Below, piece after piece: positions 31,993-40,566 of a stretch of DNA of 64,000 nt. The first letter of the stretch is position 1, and every line of letters starts with the position of its first letter. The notes under the pieces were generated by a model. The model made no database searches. It had not been told where the DNA came from and saw only the letters and a program-made list of their open reading frames with translations. The stretch comes from Streptomyces sp. GKU 895. Its GTDB lineage: Bacteria > Actinomycetota > Actinomycetes > Streptomycetales > Streptomycetaceae. The stretch is from assembly GCA_002027195.1 (NCBI GenBank), contig MWJO01000028.1:1-64000 (forward strand), given 5' to 3'. The position numbers and the translations under genes are program-made.

Positions 31993-32410
31993 GGCGTTCA
32001 GCCGCTCGGCTCCCTCAGGTGACGATCCGGCAGGGAAGCCTGCCCAGACCGTCCAGGGTGTTGTTCACGATGAACTCGGCCTTGCCGATCTCGAACCTGC
32101 GCGCCCGCGCCAGGTGAGGGGCCCGCAGGGCGTCCCCCTGGTCGGGGTGTCGGGCGAACAGCCGGCCGGCGGCCGCGCCCAGGACACGAAGGGCATCGCA
32201 AAGTGGTGATGACTTCCTCGCACGATCCCGGCGCCACCCTTGACGGAGCAATGTGTCAGCCTTGATGATTCCTTCATTACGGCTTTGTTGCCCAGGGATG
32301 GGTAGTCAAGTGTCTGGGTCGGCGCCCACTCCTGCGGCTTGCCGCCCACGAACCTGCCCGCCACACAGGCTCGCCTCCGCGCGCCGACGGCTCCTTGAGG
32401 AGGACTGTTG
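31993..32410. other. Long intergenic region with possible gene remnant on the minus strand
   Basis: No intact gene. On the minus strand, 32018-32200 reads as plausible protein (AAAGRLFARHPDQ, HLARARRFEIGKAEF, NNTLDGLGRLPCR) ending at a TGA near 32015. It has no start codon with a ribosome-binding site and no recognisable family, so it may be the tail of a lost gene. GAGGAGGA just before 32411 is the ribosome-binding site of the P450 gene. Confidence 0.35.
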
Positions 32411-33594
32411 ATGCCCACGAGCACAGAGATTCCCGTATACCACCCCGACTTGTACTCGGCGTCGGCCATCCGCGACACGTATCCCCACTACGCCGCGCTG
32501 CGTCACCTGGGCCCCGTGGTGTGGCTGAGCAAGCACAAGGTCTACGCCCTGCCGCGGTACGCCGAATGCAAGCAAGTCCTGCTGGACGACCAGACCTTCA
32601 TCTCCTCGGGCGGCGTCGCCCTGAACCCCGTCGCCAACCGCGTGGGCCAGGGCACCACCCTGTTCAGTGACGGCGACGACCATGCCCGCCGTCGCTCCCT
32701 CCTCGCGCACCGCCTCACCCCCCGGGCGTTGCGCACCATGAAGGACATGGTCGACGAGCAGGCGGTCGCGGTGGTGGAGGCCGCTGTCGCCCAGCGCACC
32801 GTCGATGCGGTGGAGGTCGCCACGCCCTGCCGATGTCCGTCGTCCCCGACCTGGTCGGCTGGCCCCGGCAGGGCCGCGAGCACCTGCTGCGCTGGGCCGG
32901 CGCCACCTTCGACGCCCTGGGCCCGCTCAACTGCCAGTCGGTACGCACACTTCCCGCGTCCCTCGGCATGATGCGCTACGCGCGCGGTGTCGTCCGTGAC
33001 CGGTCCGTGCTGGACAGCAGCCTGGGCCACGACCTGCTGTGCGCGGCCGACGACGGCCGGATCATGCCGGCCGAGTGCGCCACGATGATGATCGACTATC
33101 TGGCCCCCTCCCTCGACACCACCATCAGCGCCATCTCCAGCGCGCTGCACCTGTTCGCCACCCACCCCGAACAGTGGCGCCTGCTGAAGGCGGACCCAGA
33201 CCTCGTGTCGACCGCGGTCAACGAGGTCGTCCGGTACCAGTCCCCGATCCGGGGCTTCTCCCGGACCACGGCCCACGACACGGAACTTGCCGGCATCTCC
33301 CTGCCCAAAGGCTCCCGGGTGCTGGTCCTGTACGGCTCCGCCAACCGCGACCCGCTGGAGTGGGACGACCCGGACACGTTCGACATCCGCCGCGACGCCG
33401 CCCGCCAACTCGGCTTCGGGCAGGGCACCCACGGCTGCGCCGGCCAGGGCCTGGCCCGCATGGAGACCTCCGCGATCCTGCACGCCCTGGTCGAACGCGT
33501 CGACCGCATCGAGTTGGCCGGCACACCCCAATGGGCCCTGAACAACGTCATCCACCGCCTCGAGCGCCTGCCGCTCGAACTCATCCCGGCCTGA
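32411..33594 (+). CDS. Cytochrome P450 (frameshift near 32823)
   Basis: A 394-residue heme monooxygenase after restoring one base. ATG 32411 follows GAGGAGGA. Motifs: HARRRSLLAHRLTPRAL (C-helix), the I-helix LAPSLDTTISAISS (Asp-Thr oxygen-activation pair kept, although the usual AG is AP), ExxR in NEVVRYQSP (E272, R275), and the heme loop FGQGTHGCAGQGLAR (C343). The frame breaks at CACGCC (32821-32826): VEVAT in one frame, ALPMSVVPDLVGWP in the next, consistent with a missing C in CACCGCC. The I-helix and heme-loop sequences recall CYP199-like enzymes that act on para-substituted benzoates; this comes from memory. Ferredoxin and reductase genes follow directly, giving a complete electron chain. 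Confidence 0.92.
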
Positions 33595-35067: not shown

Positions 35068-36114
35068 TCAAGCGGATGGTGCGGCCAGGACGGCGATGTC
35101 ACCGCCGAACCCCACCACCAACCGCCCGTCGGGCGCCATGGCCACCGCGGTCACCTCCGAGGGGAACAACACATCCGAGCCCACCTGGCGGTGCGCGACA
35201 AGGTCCCACACGCGTACGGTCCGGTCGTCGCCACCCGTGGCGACGACCGGACGGCCGTCCACCACAGCCGTCGCGATGGCCCACACCGGACCGGTGTGGG
35301 CGGTCAGGGGCGTACGGCCGGTCATTCCCGTGGGGGTGGCCAGTTCCCACACCTCGATTCGGCCGTCCCAGCCGCCGGTGACGGCGACCAAGCGGCCCTC
35401 CACCACGGCGGCGGTCAGCGACACCCGCTGGCGGCTGCCGCCGGCCGGAGAAAGCACCCGGCCCTCGTGTCGGCGTTCCGTCAGGTCCCATACGTGGACG
35501 GCGCTGTCGTCGTGCAGGGTGAGGGCCTTGGGGTGGCCATCCACCACGGCTGTCACCACCACTACCACAGAGCCGACGCGACCCTTCGAGGCTTCCCCCG
35601 TCAGGGCGCCCAAGAGTTCGCCCGTGGCCGGGTCCCACATGTGCAGGCGCGGAGCGCTTCCGCCGGTGAGGACCACGCAACGACCGTCCACCACGGCCGT
35701 CGCAGCCGTCCACGCCCCACCGACGCGGCCCGCAAGGGGCTGGCGCCCCGTCAGATCCCAAAACTGCGCCAGCGTGTACGGATCGGTGACAACGGCGACG
35801 GGGCGACCGTCCACCATCCCCGTCACCACCGCCCACACCGAGCCACGGGCGGGCAACGCGTCGCCCATCCGCTCACCGGTCGACAGGTCCCAAACCAAAA
35901 CGAATTCGTCGTCACCGCCCGTAATAGCGACCGCGCGCCCCTCGACCACCGCCGTCGCGGCCGACCGCACCAAGTCGCGATGGCCGACCCCTCCGACGAC
36001 CCCACCGATCAAGTCACCGGTGGCCCATTCCACTCGCCGGCCCATGCCCACGTCCGCAGCCTGTGCCGCGGCCAACTCGGCACGGGCACTGCCCTCATGA
36101 ACCGGGTCCGTCAT
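35068..36114 (-). CDS. WD40-like repeat protein
   Basis: A 349-residue cytoplasmic protein made of seven or so WD40-type blades. Recurring units read VVDGRPV...GGDD...VWDL, for example ITGGDDEFVLVWDLSTG, VTGGWDGRIEVWEL and ATGGDDRTVRVWDL, giving a beta-propeller for protein binding. No catalytic or membrane region. ATG 36114 (TDPVHEGSARAELAAAQ) is the likely start, but no clear ribosome-binding site precedes it; an in-frame ATG at 36174 is an alternative. Such stand-alone WD40 proteins are common in Streptomyces, sometimes near kinases or conflict systems. No partner is evident here. Confidence 0.82.
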   Translation of the reverse strand: MTDPVHEGSARAELAAAQAADVGMGRRVEWATGDLIGGVVGGVGHRDLVRSAATAVVEGRAVAITGGDDEFVLVWDLSTGERMGDALPARGSVWAVVTGMVDGRPVAVVTDPYTLAQFWDLTGRQPLAGRVGGAWTAATAVVDGRCVVLTGGSAPRLHMWDPATGELLGALTGEASKGRVGSVVVVVTAVVDGHPKALTLHDDSAVHVWDLTERRHEGRVLSPAGGSRQRVSLTAAVVEGRLVAVTGGWDGRIEVWELATPTGMTGRTPLTAHTGPVWAIATAVVDGRPVVATGGDDRTVRVWDLVAHRQVGSDVLFPSEVTAVAMAPDGRLVVGFGGDIAVLAAPSA

Positions 36115-36483
36115 GATCGGGAGGCTAACCGTTCCGCTCCTGGAGACGAACCGAGAATCCCACCCCCGTTCCACGCTGCGGCGAAATACGGGACAGGCGA
36201 GCGGCCGCAGGCCGGGACATCAACTGGGCGGCAGGGAGAGGCGGCACAGTACGCCGCCCCTCCGGGCGTGCCGAAGTACGCCTCGGCCAGGCCCCTTCGC
36301 CGCGGAGCACGATCCGCACCAACTCCAGGGCCACGGCGAGGGAGACCCGCGCTGCGATCGCTGCGAGGCATGCGGCTTCCACCGACCCGTCATCACCGGG
36401 CGTGCCGTCGTCCCCGATGTTGTGGCCGTGCTCGTCTCGGTCGGCGGGGCCATGCTCTCCGCAACTTCCCTAGGATCGCTGGG
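36115..36483. other. Intergenic region without recognisable gene
   Basis: About 370 bases between divergent genes. All frames lack family similarity or codon bias that I can recognise. Short protein-like stretches (plus: RCDRCEACGFHRPV near 36355; minus: RVSLAVALELVRIVLRGEG near 36330) could be debris of a lost gene. AGGATCGCTGGG at 36472-36483 precedes the next start. Confidence 0.3.
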
Positions 36484-37336: not shown

Positions 37337-37819
37337 ATGAGTGAAGCACTGCCCGTACCTCGCCTTGTCCCGTCACTGCGGGATTGGACGAGAGCGGTCG
37401 TGGAAGCGCGGAGGCCCCAGGAGAGCGCCGCTTTCGACACCTTGATCGACCCCTACCTGACTCCTCGCGGCAGACTCCGCAGAGAGCGCGGCTCCGACGA
37501 CAGCGCATTGGGCAGCGGCGTGGACACCGCCTTGGGGCTGCTCACGCCGATCGCCGTACTGGTGTGCGCGGCGGCGCGCGACGCTTTGATCGGCACGGTC
37601 CAGGACGAGGTGGCAGGTCGGATCAGCCGACTGTTGCGCCGTGCGCGCCACCGCGGCGGCGCGGAAGAGGCCGACACGTCGGTGGCGCTGACCGTCGAGA
37701 CCTTGGCCGTGGTACGGGATGCCGCACTGCGAGCCGCACGATCAGCAGGCCTCGACGAAACCGAAGCACACGCTCTCACGGACGCCGTCACGGGTGCCCT
37801 GCTGAATCCCGAAAGGTGA
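37337..37819 (+). CDS. Hypothetical protein coupled to M48-Clp-N membrane protein
   Basis: A 160-residue protein, ATG 37337 with GGGGGA upstream. It is mainly helical, with a central hydrophobic stretch (ALGLLTPIAVLVCAAARDAL, about residues 62-85) that may be one membrane segment. It ends in an Ala-rich helical pair (AALRAARSAGLDETEAHALTDAV). No family recognised. Its stop overlaps the start of the following M48 gene (GTGA at 37816-37819), so the two proteins are probably made in fixed ratio and may interact. Confidence 0.7.
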   Translation: MSEALPVPRLVPSLRDWTRAVVEARRPQESAAFDTLIDPYLTPRGRLRRERGSDDSALGSGVDTALGLLTPIAVLVCAAARDALIGTVQDEVAGRISRLLRRARHRGGAEEADTSVALTVETLAVVRDAALRAARSAGLDETEAHALTDAVTGALLNPER

Positions 37820-40566
37820 ACGCCCCCTACCAACGCGGTCGTGCCGACGGCGGTGCGCTCGACGTACGCGAATTTCCCGAGAACACCACAATCTTGCTGG
37901 TGCTGCTCGGACTGGCGGTCGCCACCATCACCTTGTACGTCAACGTGCTCTTCACCAGCGGCGACATCCCGCCGTGCCTCCAGTACGTCGACGGCCTGGC
38001 CGCAGGCCACTTTCGATCCCCAGACGAGATCCACTGTGTCGCCCGGTCCTTGCACGCGATGGGAGCCGGGGCGCTGAAGCGCATGGGGCAGCCTTTGCTG
38101 TTCGGGCTGATGCTCTATGCCGGCGCCTCCTCGCTGCGGCTGCGCACGTTGAAACCCCTCGGCGCCTCCCACGCGCCTCAGGCCCGGCGGATCCGCGCCC
38201 TGGCCGAGCGGACCGACCTGCGCCGCCGCCCACTCATCTTCGGCGCTCGTCGAGGGCGGCACACGACGGGAGTGGGCGGATCGCCGCGCAAGTACTACAT
38301 CCGCGTGTCCAACAACCACCTGGCCTGGTATGAACTCGGCGCCCGGCGGCGGGATGCCTTCGATGCCGTGATCCTCCACGAGCTCGCCCACCTCGATACC
38401 GGCGATCTCCGCCGCTACCAAGCGGCGCGTGCGATGCGTCGGTTGGCCTTCGCGTACTGCTTCGCAGCACTGCTGACCCTGCCGACGCTGGCCGAAACAC
38501 AGGCACTCCTCCTGATCACTCAGATGGCACTGCTGTCTGTGGGGGTGGAACTGCTGGTCCGCGCGTTCTTGCGAGCCCGCGAGTTCCGCGCTGATGCCCG
38601 AGCCGCAGCGGTGGCGCCTGAAGGCATGTCGTACTCGGCCGAGCTCGCGGCACAGGGCAAGAAGGCACGAGGCGGTCTCGGCAGACTGCTTGCCCGGCAC
38701 CCCGACGCGGCACATCGCCTGGCCGCACTGCGTGATCCGCTGAGCGTGTTGCGGTTCCCGGTGTCTCACGCGTTGAGCGCCGGGTTCTTCGGCGGGCTCG
38801 CCCTCTCCGTGCTTGCCACCGTGTTCGGCTACTTGTACTGGCAGCCGGGTGGCCCGGTCGGCAGAGAGACGTCCCTTGCAGCCATGGTGGTCGGCGCCCC
38901 GCTCACCGTGGCTGTCTGCCTGGGCACGTTGCGGCACGCTTGGGCGGATCTGCTGGCTGGTCGGAGCACGCGGACGGTTCCACTGATCATGGCGCTGACA
39001 TGCGGGCTGATCGTGGGGCGCTACGTGTCGCCGTTCTTTTCGGTCGTCGCGGATACAGGCGCCGGTGACGCCTTCTGGCCCATGGCCGTGGCGACCCTGC
39101 TCATGGCCGTGATTGCCGTACGGTGGCCCGTCGCCGTCGCGGCCGGATGGTTCCCCGTGGATGAGGACTCGGAAAGCCGCCGGGCCACTGGCGATGCCCA
39201 CAGCGGGACCTTCAGATTCATGAAGCGGGTAGCCATTGTTGTCGGGTGCCTGCTGTACTTCCGCATCATTGCCGCCTGGGGACTGTTCGGTCGACTTGCC
39301 GACAGCGTTGCCTCACAAGTCGTGAGCGGGCCCCCTGGGCTTCCCGACCGCTTGGATCTCGATGGCCTTCGACGACTGGTTCTCCTCGTTCTCGAATCGG
39401 CCAGCGGTGGTTGGCCGGCAGCCGTGGTTCTGACGCTCGCATGGTCATTACCTCTCGTACCTCGGCTCGTGTTGCCGACCCACTCACCACCGGCACAGGA
39501 ACTGCGATACGGACGCCGCGCGCGCCGCTCGGGCGTACTGTGGGCCGGCGCTGCCTGGGTCGCCGGGCTCGCGGGCGTATTCCTCGGTGCCGAGCTGAGT
39601 CTCTGGGCAGGGCTCGGCCTCTCACTCCCGAACCGGATGGCGCTGGTGGTCGGCTCGATGGTGATCGCGTCGGCGCTGACCACATTGCGGGTTCGCGGTC
39701 CTCTCGCAGGTCCGTACGCCATGGCGGCGGCGTTCACGGCTGCCCTCGTGGGCATGCTCCTTCACCTGGGGTCGGAAGCTGGCCGGCATGAACTGTCGAC
39801 GGCTCTGACGCACGTCCTGGCAGCCGGGCAGATGTTGGCCGCTCTCACTACCTTGGCCGTGGGCAGCGTCAAACGGCTGTTTGGCCAAGCGGCGAGCCTC
39901 TTGCCGGACAACGTCGGCGGCGAGAGAGCTTCTGACGAGGCGTCCGCCCCGTCGACTGCTGCCGGTCCTCTCGCGGAGTCGGTGCGTCGGGCTCTCAACC
40001 GTTCCGACCCCACAGGGGGGCAGGGACTCAAGGTGCCCTCAGCGCCGGTGCGAGGACCCGTCACATCTGAGCCCACTGGAACACCTGCTGCTCCAGAAGA
40101 ACTGCCGGTGACCGATACGGTTCGTCAAGCACTCGATCGCGCAGCGACCCTGGCCCGTGCGAACACGTTCCTGCTGAGTACCCAAGACCTGCTCGTTGCC
40201 TTGATGCAAACCGACGGTGCGGCCGAGTGGGACCGGATCTGGCTGCACACCCGGCCTGTCGAGCACCTGCGCAATCATTCGCTCCCGGACCCTCCGACTG
40301 CGAGGCCCCTGACACGGCACGGCCACCTGATGACGGCGGCCTGCGCCGAGTCCCTGAGAAGGGCCGAACGTATTGCGCGACACTGTGCCATGCCCCTGAC
40401 GAGTGGCGCTGTCACTCTTGCGCTGGTGTCCGACCCCGCCTCCGCTGCCGCGCGGGCCCTGGGTGTCGGTACCGGGATAACGGAGACGGAACTCCTGGAT
40501 CTGGTTCAGGAGTGCGTCCTCGGCTTCAGAATCGAGAACCTGCCGCAGCTCCTCGAAGCCTCCTGA
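37816..40566 (+). CDS. M48-family membrane metallopeptidase with C-terminal Clp-N-like domain
   Basis: A 916-residue membrane protein starting at GTG 37816, which overlaps the previous stop. Membrane helices lie near residues 25-45 and 90-105. Then comes the HtpX/M48 zinc site VILHELAHLDTGD (HELAH about 188-192) with the downstream AREFRADARA. A long region of eight or more further helices follows (about 210-700). The C-terminal 150 residues carry a Clp-N-like repeat domain (ARANTFLLSTQDLLVALMQ, HGHLMTAACAESLRRAERIA, GAVTLALVSDP). M48 enzymes degrade misfolded membrane proteins. The Clp-N fold normally selects substrates or adaptors for Clp ATPases, so the fusion could couple the two. The pairing with the upstream gene is tight. 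Confidence 0.82.
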   Translation: MNAPYQRGRADGGALDVREFPENTTILLVLLGLAVATITLYVNVLFTSGDIPPCLQYVDGLAAGHFRSPDEIHCVARSLHAMGAGALKRMGQPLLFGLMLYAGASSLRLRTLKPLGASHAPQARRIRALAERTDLRRRPLIFGARRGRHTTGVGGSPRKYYIRVSNNHLAWYELGARRRDAFDAVILHELAHLDTGDLRRYQAARAMRRLAFAYCFAALLTLPTLAETQALLLITQMALLSVGVELLVRAFLRAREFRADARAAAVAPEGMSYSAELAAQGKKARGGLGRLLARHPDAAHRLAALRDPLSVLRFPVSHALSAGFFGGLALSVLATVFGYLYWQPGGPVGRETSLAAMVVGAPLTVAVCLGTLRHAWADLLAGRSTRTVPLIMALTCGLIVGRYVSPFFSVVADTGAGDAFWPMAVATLLMAVIAVRWPVAVAAGWFPVDEDSESRRATGDAHSGTFRFMKRVAIVVGCLLYFRIIAAWGLFGRLADSVASQVVSGPPGLPDRLDLDGLRRLVLLVLESASGGWPAAVVLTLAWSLPLVPRLVLPTHSPPAQELRYGRRARRSGVLWAGAAWVAGLAGVFLGAELSLWAGLGLSLPNRMALVVGSMVIASALTTLRVRGPLAGPYAMAAAFTAALVGMLLHLGSEAGRHELSTALTHVLAAGQMLAALTTLAVGSVKRLFGQAASLLPDNVGGERASDEASAPSTAAGPLAESVRRALNRSDPTGGQGLKVPSAPVRGPVTSEPTGTPAAPEELPVTDTVRQALDRAATLARANTFLLSTQDLLVALMQTDGAAEWDRIWLHTRPVEHLRNHSLPDPPTARPLTRHGHLMTAACAESLRRAERIARHCAMPLTSGAVTLALVSDPASAAARALGVGTGITETELLDLVQECVLGFRIENLPQLLEAS

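What the first reader, a model, noticed from the sequence alone, without database searches (positions are those of the whole stretch)
37337..40566. Two-gene unit: small hypothetical protein coupled to an M48 peptidase fused to a Clp-N-like domain
A 916-residue polytopic membrane protein combines an HELAH zinc protease with a C-terminal repeat domain resembling Clp-N, the substrate/adaptor part of Clp ATPases. It overlaps by GTGA with an upstream 160-residue protein of unknown family. The fusion suggests membrane proteolysis linked to Clp-type substrate recognition, or a stress or conflict module. This is the clearest unknown system in the hypothetical region.
Basis: partly seen in the sequence, partly recalled or inferred. 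Interest (0 to 1): 0.6.

Follow-up and report, generated by a model that had tools for sequence, protein, structure and literature searches.

The report
Membrane protease pair with Clp-N tail
A pair of neighbouring bacterial genes, a small unknown protein and a many-times membrane-spanning zinc protease, stays together across distant bacteria; in this genome the protease carries an unusual tail predicted to fold like the client-binding end of Clp protein-degradation machines.

Summary
In detail: window 37337-37819 (P2, 160 aa) overlaps by GTGA an ORF at 37816-40566 (916 aa) with an M48 HELAH site (Pfam E=4e-10). The pair travels together: 89 of 100 fetched P2 loci have this M48 type adjacent; conversely 39 of 41 such M48 genes, window included, have P2 alongside. 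It also occurs on Caballeronia plasmids. P2 matched no family searched. The Clp-N tail is exceptional: 2 of 92 M48 partners have it, the window and Actinacidiphila oryziradicis; others have little tail or one that looks extracytoplasmic. ClpC's phosphoarginine and cyclomarin residues are not kept, so ClpC-like recognition or antibiotic capture is unsupported. Best reading: a self-contained membrane sensor-protease module with interchangeable tails, P2 being its dedicated membrane partner or substrate; here a Clp-N-type receptor, probably cytosolic, replaces the outer sensor. Architecture and pairing are well supported; sidedness is a crude prediction; mechanism is inferred.

The parts
37337..37819 (+). 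P2: 160-aa small partner protein. Predicted helices 14-24, 31-40, 61-106, 120-136, 141-156; hydrophobic stretch 62-80 (window 37520-37576) at the start of the long helix
   Evidence: no convincing Pfam/NCBIfam/PADLOC/PDB relative; purifying selection
37816..40566 (+). Polytopic M48 metalloprotease with C-terminal Clp-N-fold domain, 916 aa, GTG start overlapping the P2 stop (GTGA)
37885..38139 (+). TM1 - loop with conserved Cys54 and Cys74, predicted outside - TM2
   Evidence: GES hydropathy; C54 in 34 of 37 and C74 in 33 of 37 aligned sequences
38347..38736 (+). M48 catalytic domain, residues 178-307: HELAH 188-192 (38377-38391), third ligand E256 (38581-38583), HP 295-296; predicted cytosolic
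38770..39870 (+). Ten further predicted membrane helices (TM5-TM14), followed by the basic KR at residues 687-688
   Evidence: helices; sequence VKRLFG after the last helix
40096..40530 (+). Double Clp-N-fold domain, residues 761-905, predicted cytosolic
   Evidence: AlphaFold pLDDT 75.8, pTM 0.73 in the best of five models; Foldseek E 2.8e-4, prob 1.00; VIA Z 14.3 over 127 residues

Best explanation
A self-contained two-gene membrane sensor-protease module. Supported: a polytopic M48 protease with an intact zinc-site sequence and a Cys-paired outer loop is encoded next to a dedicated small helical partner, P2, and the pair moves as a unit. Its C-terminal region is interchangeable: little or none, apparently outside the membrane, or, here, a Clp-N-fold domain. 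Inferred: the tail senses a ligand or misfolded client and gates or feeds the cytosolic zinc site; P2, which is co-inherited with the protease and has a long helix that begins hydrophobic and turns basic, is the membrane-bound regulatory subunit or regulated substrate through which the signal takes effect. In the window's version the trigger or client is cytosolic (side predicted), taken up by the Clp-N fold as in Clp unfoldases but without a AAA+ motor.
For: Pairing: 89 of 100 P2 loci have this M48 adjacent (87 same strand with P2 first, one of them with a 477-base gap and one a broken copy; 1 convergent; 1 with order reversed); 3 more have another HExxH-bearing ORF next door and 2 are cut by contig ends. 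Converse: of 41 M48 matches of this type (E<=2.8e-34, a limit set at the gap before the next match at 1.3e-22) in 150 genomes, the window's included, 39 have P2 alongside (36, 3 weak ones at 3e-10 to 9e-7). M48-first searches led to the pair in a Streptosporangiaceae MAG (convergent) and in Caballeronia (3 of 3 records; one small protein matches the P2 profile at 2.2e-31, the two others are 72% and 65% identical to it). P2 and M48 identities correlate, r=0.76 over 30 pairs, 0 of 5000 permutations reach it. Catalytic residues and Cys pair conserved. Tails: by an automatic cut, of 83 complete M48 partners 22 have tails under 60 aa; of 61 tailed, 44 have a basic loop before a last helix and 38 have exactly two Cys; one tail resembles the PknH_C extracellular domain (E 4.9e-5, below cut-off). 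In the window and L022 the last helix of typical relatives is missing. Clp-N fold; with a third tail, profile comparison aligns 123 columns, E 1.6e-4; that third tail sits in L092 after a canonical Clp_N.
Against: No biochemical data; P2 as substrate or subunit is inferred from linkage alone. The r=0.76 is not corrected for shared ancestry. Topology rests on a hydropathy scale; predicted helices inside the tails of the window and L022 were discounted, as was one in L022's linker, and residues 505-523 of L022 are doubtful, so helix parity alone does not settle the side. The tail cut is crude: L024 was counted as short though it has a soluble C-terminus. Only one of five AlphaFold tail models was confident (75.8; the others 50.1 to 39.2), from two sequences. 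P2 has kept 66% identity to a homologue whose M48 partner is only 22% identical in the core and ends without a tail, which argues against P2 being specific to the Clp-N tail. 22 of 83 partners were scored as having little or no tail. Six P2 loci show no protease neighbour and 2 of 41 M48 genes show no P2.
Confidence: 0.45

Rival explanations
1. An ordinary HtpX-like membrane quality-control protease; P2 is an accessory folding or assembly subunit and the Clp-N tail a generic binding domain for unfolded clients, without signalling.
For: M48 with HtpX-like order TM-loop-TM-HExxH-TM-TM (the HtpX order is recalled); weak NCBIfam HtpX similarity (E 5e-4); Clp N-domains associate with adaptors and deliver substrates (passage of PMC10030653).
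Against: HtpX cut-off far from met (19.5 against 245 bits); the window's genome has a separate match of about 324 aa at 7.8e-21, and many genomes listed have one like it, which are probably the HtpX proper (not tested), far from this family's scores; the pair is patchy (80 of 394 family genomes) and tails vary.
Confidence: 0.25
2. P2 is a membrane-active toxin or effector held in check or released by the M48 protease: a defence or conflict module, with the tail as sensor of infection or of rival products.
For: Patchy occurrence, presence on Streptomyces and Caballeronia plasmids, third-position GC 0.76 against 0.82-0.96 in seven nearby genes, exchange of the M48 partner, variable tails, hydrophobic-then-basic helix in P2.
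Against: No PADLOC hit, no third gene recurring in more than 6 of 37 loci, no match to P0001 in the phage collection; six P2 genes stand without a protease neighbour.
Confidence: 0.2
3. The Clp-N tail is a decoy or sensor for natural products that attack ClpC1, as ClpC2 is for cyclomarin, coupled to a membrane protease.
For: Same predicted fold; ClpC2 domains are among the Foldseek matches; ClpC2 works as a sponge for cyclomarin, which a Streptomyces makes (PMC10030653 passages).
Against: F2, F80 and E89, named there as critical, align to gap, M and R in the window tail; only three strong tails of this type in 394 genomes.
Confidence: 0.07
4. The tail docks phosphoarginine-marked proteins exactly as the ClpC N-domain does, handing them to M48.
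For: Fold match over both repeats.
Against: The two phosphoarginine-site glutamates (E32, E106; PMC12583610 passages) align to Q and G in window and L022.
Confidence: 0.03

Closest known systems
HtpX / M48 membrane metalloproteases
   Same: Pfam M48; TM1-loop-TM2-HExxH-TM3-TM4 order (the order in HtpX is recalled)
   Different: About ten more membrane helices, a Cys-paired outer loop, C-terminal tails in many members, adjacent partner P2; HtpX equivalog cut-off not met
Clp_N domains (ClpC/ClpA/ClpB N-domain, ClpC2, plant ClpT)
   Same: Double helical repeat fold on the predicted model, Z 11-14 in the 50 rows shown
   Different: No sequence-profile hit; residues for phosphoarginine and cyclomarin changed; fused to a membrane protease instead of a AAA+ ATPase
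BlaR1/MecR1 (M56) sensor proteases with BlaI/MecI (recalled, no call)
   Same: Membrane-embedded zinc protease with a C-terminal sensor, encoded beside a small partner
   Different: M48 not M56, many more helices; among 35 P2 members one weak HTH match (E 0.029); no beta-lactam sensor seen
G272 586-aa protein (L092)
   Same: Carries the same tail-type domain (E 8.4e-26), after a canonical Clp_N
   Different: No M48 and no P2 by profile in the 19 kb fetched; lies among ORFs that look like transposases (by eye)

Membership tests
Peptidase M48 | Pfam profile above gathering score | tested here: met
   40.3 against 20.3 bits
Peptidase M48 | HExxH plus downstream Glu ligand | tested here: met
   present in the window; H188 37, E189 36, H192 36, E256 36, D260 36 of 37 aligned sequences
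Peptidase M48 | Zinc-dependent proteolysis | not testable with these tools
   no assay
HtpX | NCBIfam HtpX equivalog cut-off | tested here: not met
   best 19.5 bits against 245
Clp_N (PF02861) | Profile hit above gathering score | tested here: not met
   no hit in P0001 or in the tail alone; absent from the own-genome list of 13 matches
Clp_N (PF02861) | Double-repeat Clp-N fold | tested here: met
   on a predicted model only: Foldseek E 2.8e-4, Z 14.3, 127 residues, rmsd 2.5
Clp_N (PF02861) | Phosphoarginine-site glutamates E32/E106 as in ClpC | tested here: not met
   Q and G; not general to Clp_N: the own-genome ClpB keeps only the second
ClpC2-type antibiotic sponge | F2, F80, E89 for cyclomarin | tested here: not met
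   gap, M, R
BlaR1/BlaI-type sensor protease pair | Partner is an HTH repressor | tested here: inconclusive
   no Pfam HTH in P2 itself; 1 of 35 members HTH_31 at E 0.029
BlaR1/BlaI-type sensor protease pair | Protease is of family M56 | tested here: not met
   M48 is the only Pfam family listed for P0001 at E<=10
Known anti-phage defence systems | PADLOC profile hit | tested here: not met
   0 families for P0001, P0002, P0003 at E<=1

The most novel reading that the evidence does not exclude
The P2-M48 pair is an undescribed, cross-phylum class of modular sensor proteases with exchangeable sensors, and this version has turned its sensor inside out: a Clp-N-type receptor recruits cytosolic clients or signals to a membrane zinc protease, giving Clp-like recognition without an ATP motor that acts on the membrane partner P2.
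Probability: 0.22. Interest if true: 0.75.

Novelty: new variant of a known kind. Interest (0 to 1): 0.52.

Why it matters
P2 defines a protein family for which I found no name or function, yet it is tied to one type of membrane protease in Streptomycetaceae, a few other Actinomycetota and Caballeronia, so it is the obvious candidate partner or substrate and can be tested directly. The window's version is a rare natural domain swap in which a tail that usually looks extracytoplasmic has been replaced by a Clp-N fold predicted inside, which would tell whether Clp-N receptors can serve a protease without a AAA+ motor. Six searches of the held open-access library aimed at M48 or the pair and one at ClpC2 listed no paper that, by title and start of abstract, describes the pair; one search listed 10 of 20 papers, and most subscription journals are not in that library.

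Tried and rejected
Clp-N by sequence: Pfam at E<=10 and a PDB sequence search found nothing relevant. A two-sequence profile comparison gave hhalign probability 3.6; against single own-genome Clp_N sequences, 33, 232, 37 and 2 of 400 pieces scored at least as high as ClpC, ClpB, L061 and L062, two of the 400 being the tail's own genes. Only the fold search and the three-sequence profile (probability 50%) speak for it. Tail profile over 394 genomes: besides three strong hits, eight at E 0.0018-0.006, of which one (L087) is a Clp ATPase by its sequence and the others I looked at seem chance. P2 fold: Foldseek's best E is 0.37, globins at rmsd 16-18, taken as noise. P2 profile against PDB sequences: nothing below E 0.12. 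P2 members against Pfam and NCBIfam: nine families each, 1 or 2 members apiece, taken as chance (best Trypan_PARP 9e-4 and RsbA_anti_sig 5.1e-5, each in 1 of 35, not followed up). Literature: searches returned no paper; 45, 107, 108 nothing relevant by title and abstract start. Plasmids and phages with P0001: no match. IMG/VR viral contigs: none. First genome-contig scan with P0001 alone: none. The conflict and ClpC2 readings were weighed and kept as rivals.

Full report
Observation. Window 37337-37819 encodes a 160-aa protein (P2) whose TGA overlaps the GTG start of a 916-aa ORF, 37816-40566. The long protein matches Pfam M48 at E=4e-10 over residues 178-307 and only weakly HtpX (19.5 bits against a cut-off of 245). 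HELAH is residues 188-192. In an alignment of 37 sequences the zinc-site residues and H295-P296 are conserved in 36 or 37, and two cysteines of the first outer loop, C54 and C74, in 34 and 33. Both genes have third-position GC of 0.76 against 0.82-0.96 for seven genes nearby, which suggests arrival as a unit. A search of the own genome with the whole protein finds only itself; a profile of the M48 core finds three matches there, one of about 324 aa at 7.8e-21 being listed besides the window's.

The tail. No sequence method finds Clp_N in P0001 or in the tail alone, and the window is not among the 13 PF02861 matches of the own genome. AlphaFold on the tail with its one close relative gave a confident model in one of five runs (pLDDT 75.8, pTM 0.73; the others 50.1 to 39.2). 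Foldseek's best matches are ClpC N-domains (E 2.8e-4, probability 1.00; the 50 rows shown are ClpC, ClpA, ClpB, ClpD, ClpC2, ClpT and a malarial relative). VIA-align gives Z 14.3 over 127 residues at 2.5 A, covering both repeats. The tool warns that helical models can reach such Z by chance; here the rows shown are one family and the whole domain is covered. A third tail of the same type (L092, from G272, E 8.4e-26) lies in a 586-aa protein right after a canonical Clp_N (E 2.7e-11). With that third sequence, profile comparison aligns 123 columns to Clp_N (E 1.6e-4, probability 50%), and a six-sequence Clp_N profile ranks the three tails 2nd, 3rd and 5th of 808 pieces (window E 0.0038), behind a protein that scores as a true Clp_N.

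What the tail has lost. ClpC binds phosphoarginine through E32 and E106 (PMC12583610, passages seen), and ClpC1 binds cyclomarin through F2, F80 and E89 (PMC10030653, passages seen). In an alignment of nine sequences these become Q, G, gap, M and R in the window. So the fold appears to be Clp-N, but these two known binding functions are not supported.

The pair. A search with P2 hit 32 of 297 genomes of the family, the own genome included; a 35-sequence profile hit 80 of 394, in 9 of 17 genera, and 5 of 396 in a phylum sample, two of these outside the family. I fetched 100 P2 loci besides the window (35, 65). By profile, 87 have the M48 gene next on the same strand with P2 first (one with a 477-base gap, one a broken copy), one is convergent, one has the order reversed and 11 have none. 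Of the 11, two end at contig ends, three have another HExxH-bearing ORF next door that the profile misses, and in six I saw no protease neighbour. Conversely, a profile of the M48 core over 150 genomes gave 41 matches at E<=2.8e-34, then a gap to 1.3e-22, where matches of about 300 aa begin that are probably HtpX. Of the 41, window included, 39 have P2 alongside (36 seen; three weaker ones, E 3e-10 to 9e-7), while L196 and L197 show none. M48-first searches also led to P2 in a Streptosporangiaceae MAG (L072) and in three Caballeronia plasmid records, where a 'hypothetical protein' lies just upstream of an 'M48 family metalloprotease'. Streptomyces anulatus linear plasmids carry the pair with the same labels. 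In 37 loci no third gene family occurs in more than 6, and the three Caballeronia neighbourhoods differ.

Modularity. P2 and M48 identities correlate over 30 pairs (r=0.76, 0 of 5000 permutations; common ancestry is not removed). The window and G317 are a sharp exception: P2 66% but M48 core 22% identical, 7 standard deviations off. DNA similarity between them (71%, window 37432-37827) stops about 8 bases after the P2 stop, and the G317 protease ends without a tail. The simplest reading is that one protease was exchanged for another under a kept P2. By an automatic and crude cut, of 83 complete M48 partners 22 have tails under 60 aa (at least one, L024, wrongly so); of the 61 others, 44 have a basic loop followed by one last helix and 38 have exactly two cysteines, as expected for tails outside. 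One such tail resembles the PknH extracellular domain below Pfam's cut-off. The window's tail type is in 2 of 92 partner ORFs. The window and L022 lack that last helix of typical relatives, so their tails should be inside, in line with a Clp-N fold. This rests on a hydropathy scale, not on a trained predictor; I discounted predicted helices within the tails and in L022's linker.

Mechanism. I take the pair to be a membrane sensor-protease module with P2 as dedicated membrane partner or substrate (inferred). In the window's lineage a Clp-N-type receptor stands in for the outer sensor (fold shown on a model, side predicted, function inferred). P2 has a predicted 46-residue helix, hydrophobic then basic, and a C-terminal hairpin (best of five models 76.1), and no convincing relatives in the libraries searched. 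A toxin/effector role for P2 and a plain quality-control role for the protease remain open.

Novelty. The parts are known kinds; the P2 family, its tie to this protease and the Clp-N tail swap were not met in my searches of the open-access library (of which I saw listings only, besides passages of the two ClpC papers).

Noticed in passing
window 32408-33594: A cytochrome P450-like reading frame appears split over two overlapping ORFs (187 and 253 aa), followed by a small ferredoxin-like and a reductase-like ORF; names are from recall.
   Followed up: no
window 35068-36174 (-): A WD40-repeat-like protein of 368 aa (name by eye) upstream of the pair on the other strand, with somewhat low GC3 (0.82).
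   Followed up: partly
L092:8232-9992: 586-aa protein with canonical Clp_N followed by the window's tail-type domain and a hydrophobic stretch, surrounded by ORFs that look like transposases.
   Followed up: partly
L152, L153, L156: Distant P2 relatives sit just upstream of a different HExxH-bearing ORF (HELAHD in L153, HELGHD in L156), perhaps a second branch of the same pairing.
   Followed up: partly
L159:3439-6229: The Caballeronia grimmiae pair lies beside type VI secretion vgrG and hcp genes; this neighbourhood is not seen in the two other Caballeronia records.
   Followed up: yes
L053:6900-8200: A broken copy of the pair, P2 and a fragment of M48 in disturbed frames.
   Followed up: no
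L198:4780-8399: In G135 an M48 ORF of about 1011 aa scoring only 3e-20, in the range of the HtpX-like matches, also has a weak P2-like ORF (1e-8) just upstream.
   Followed up: no
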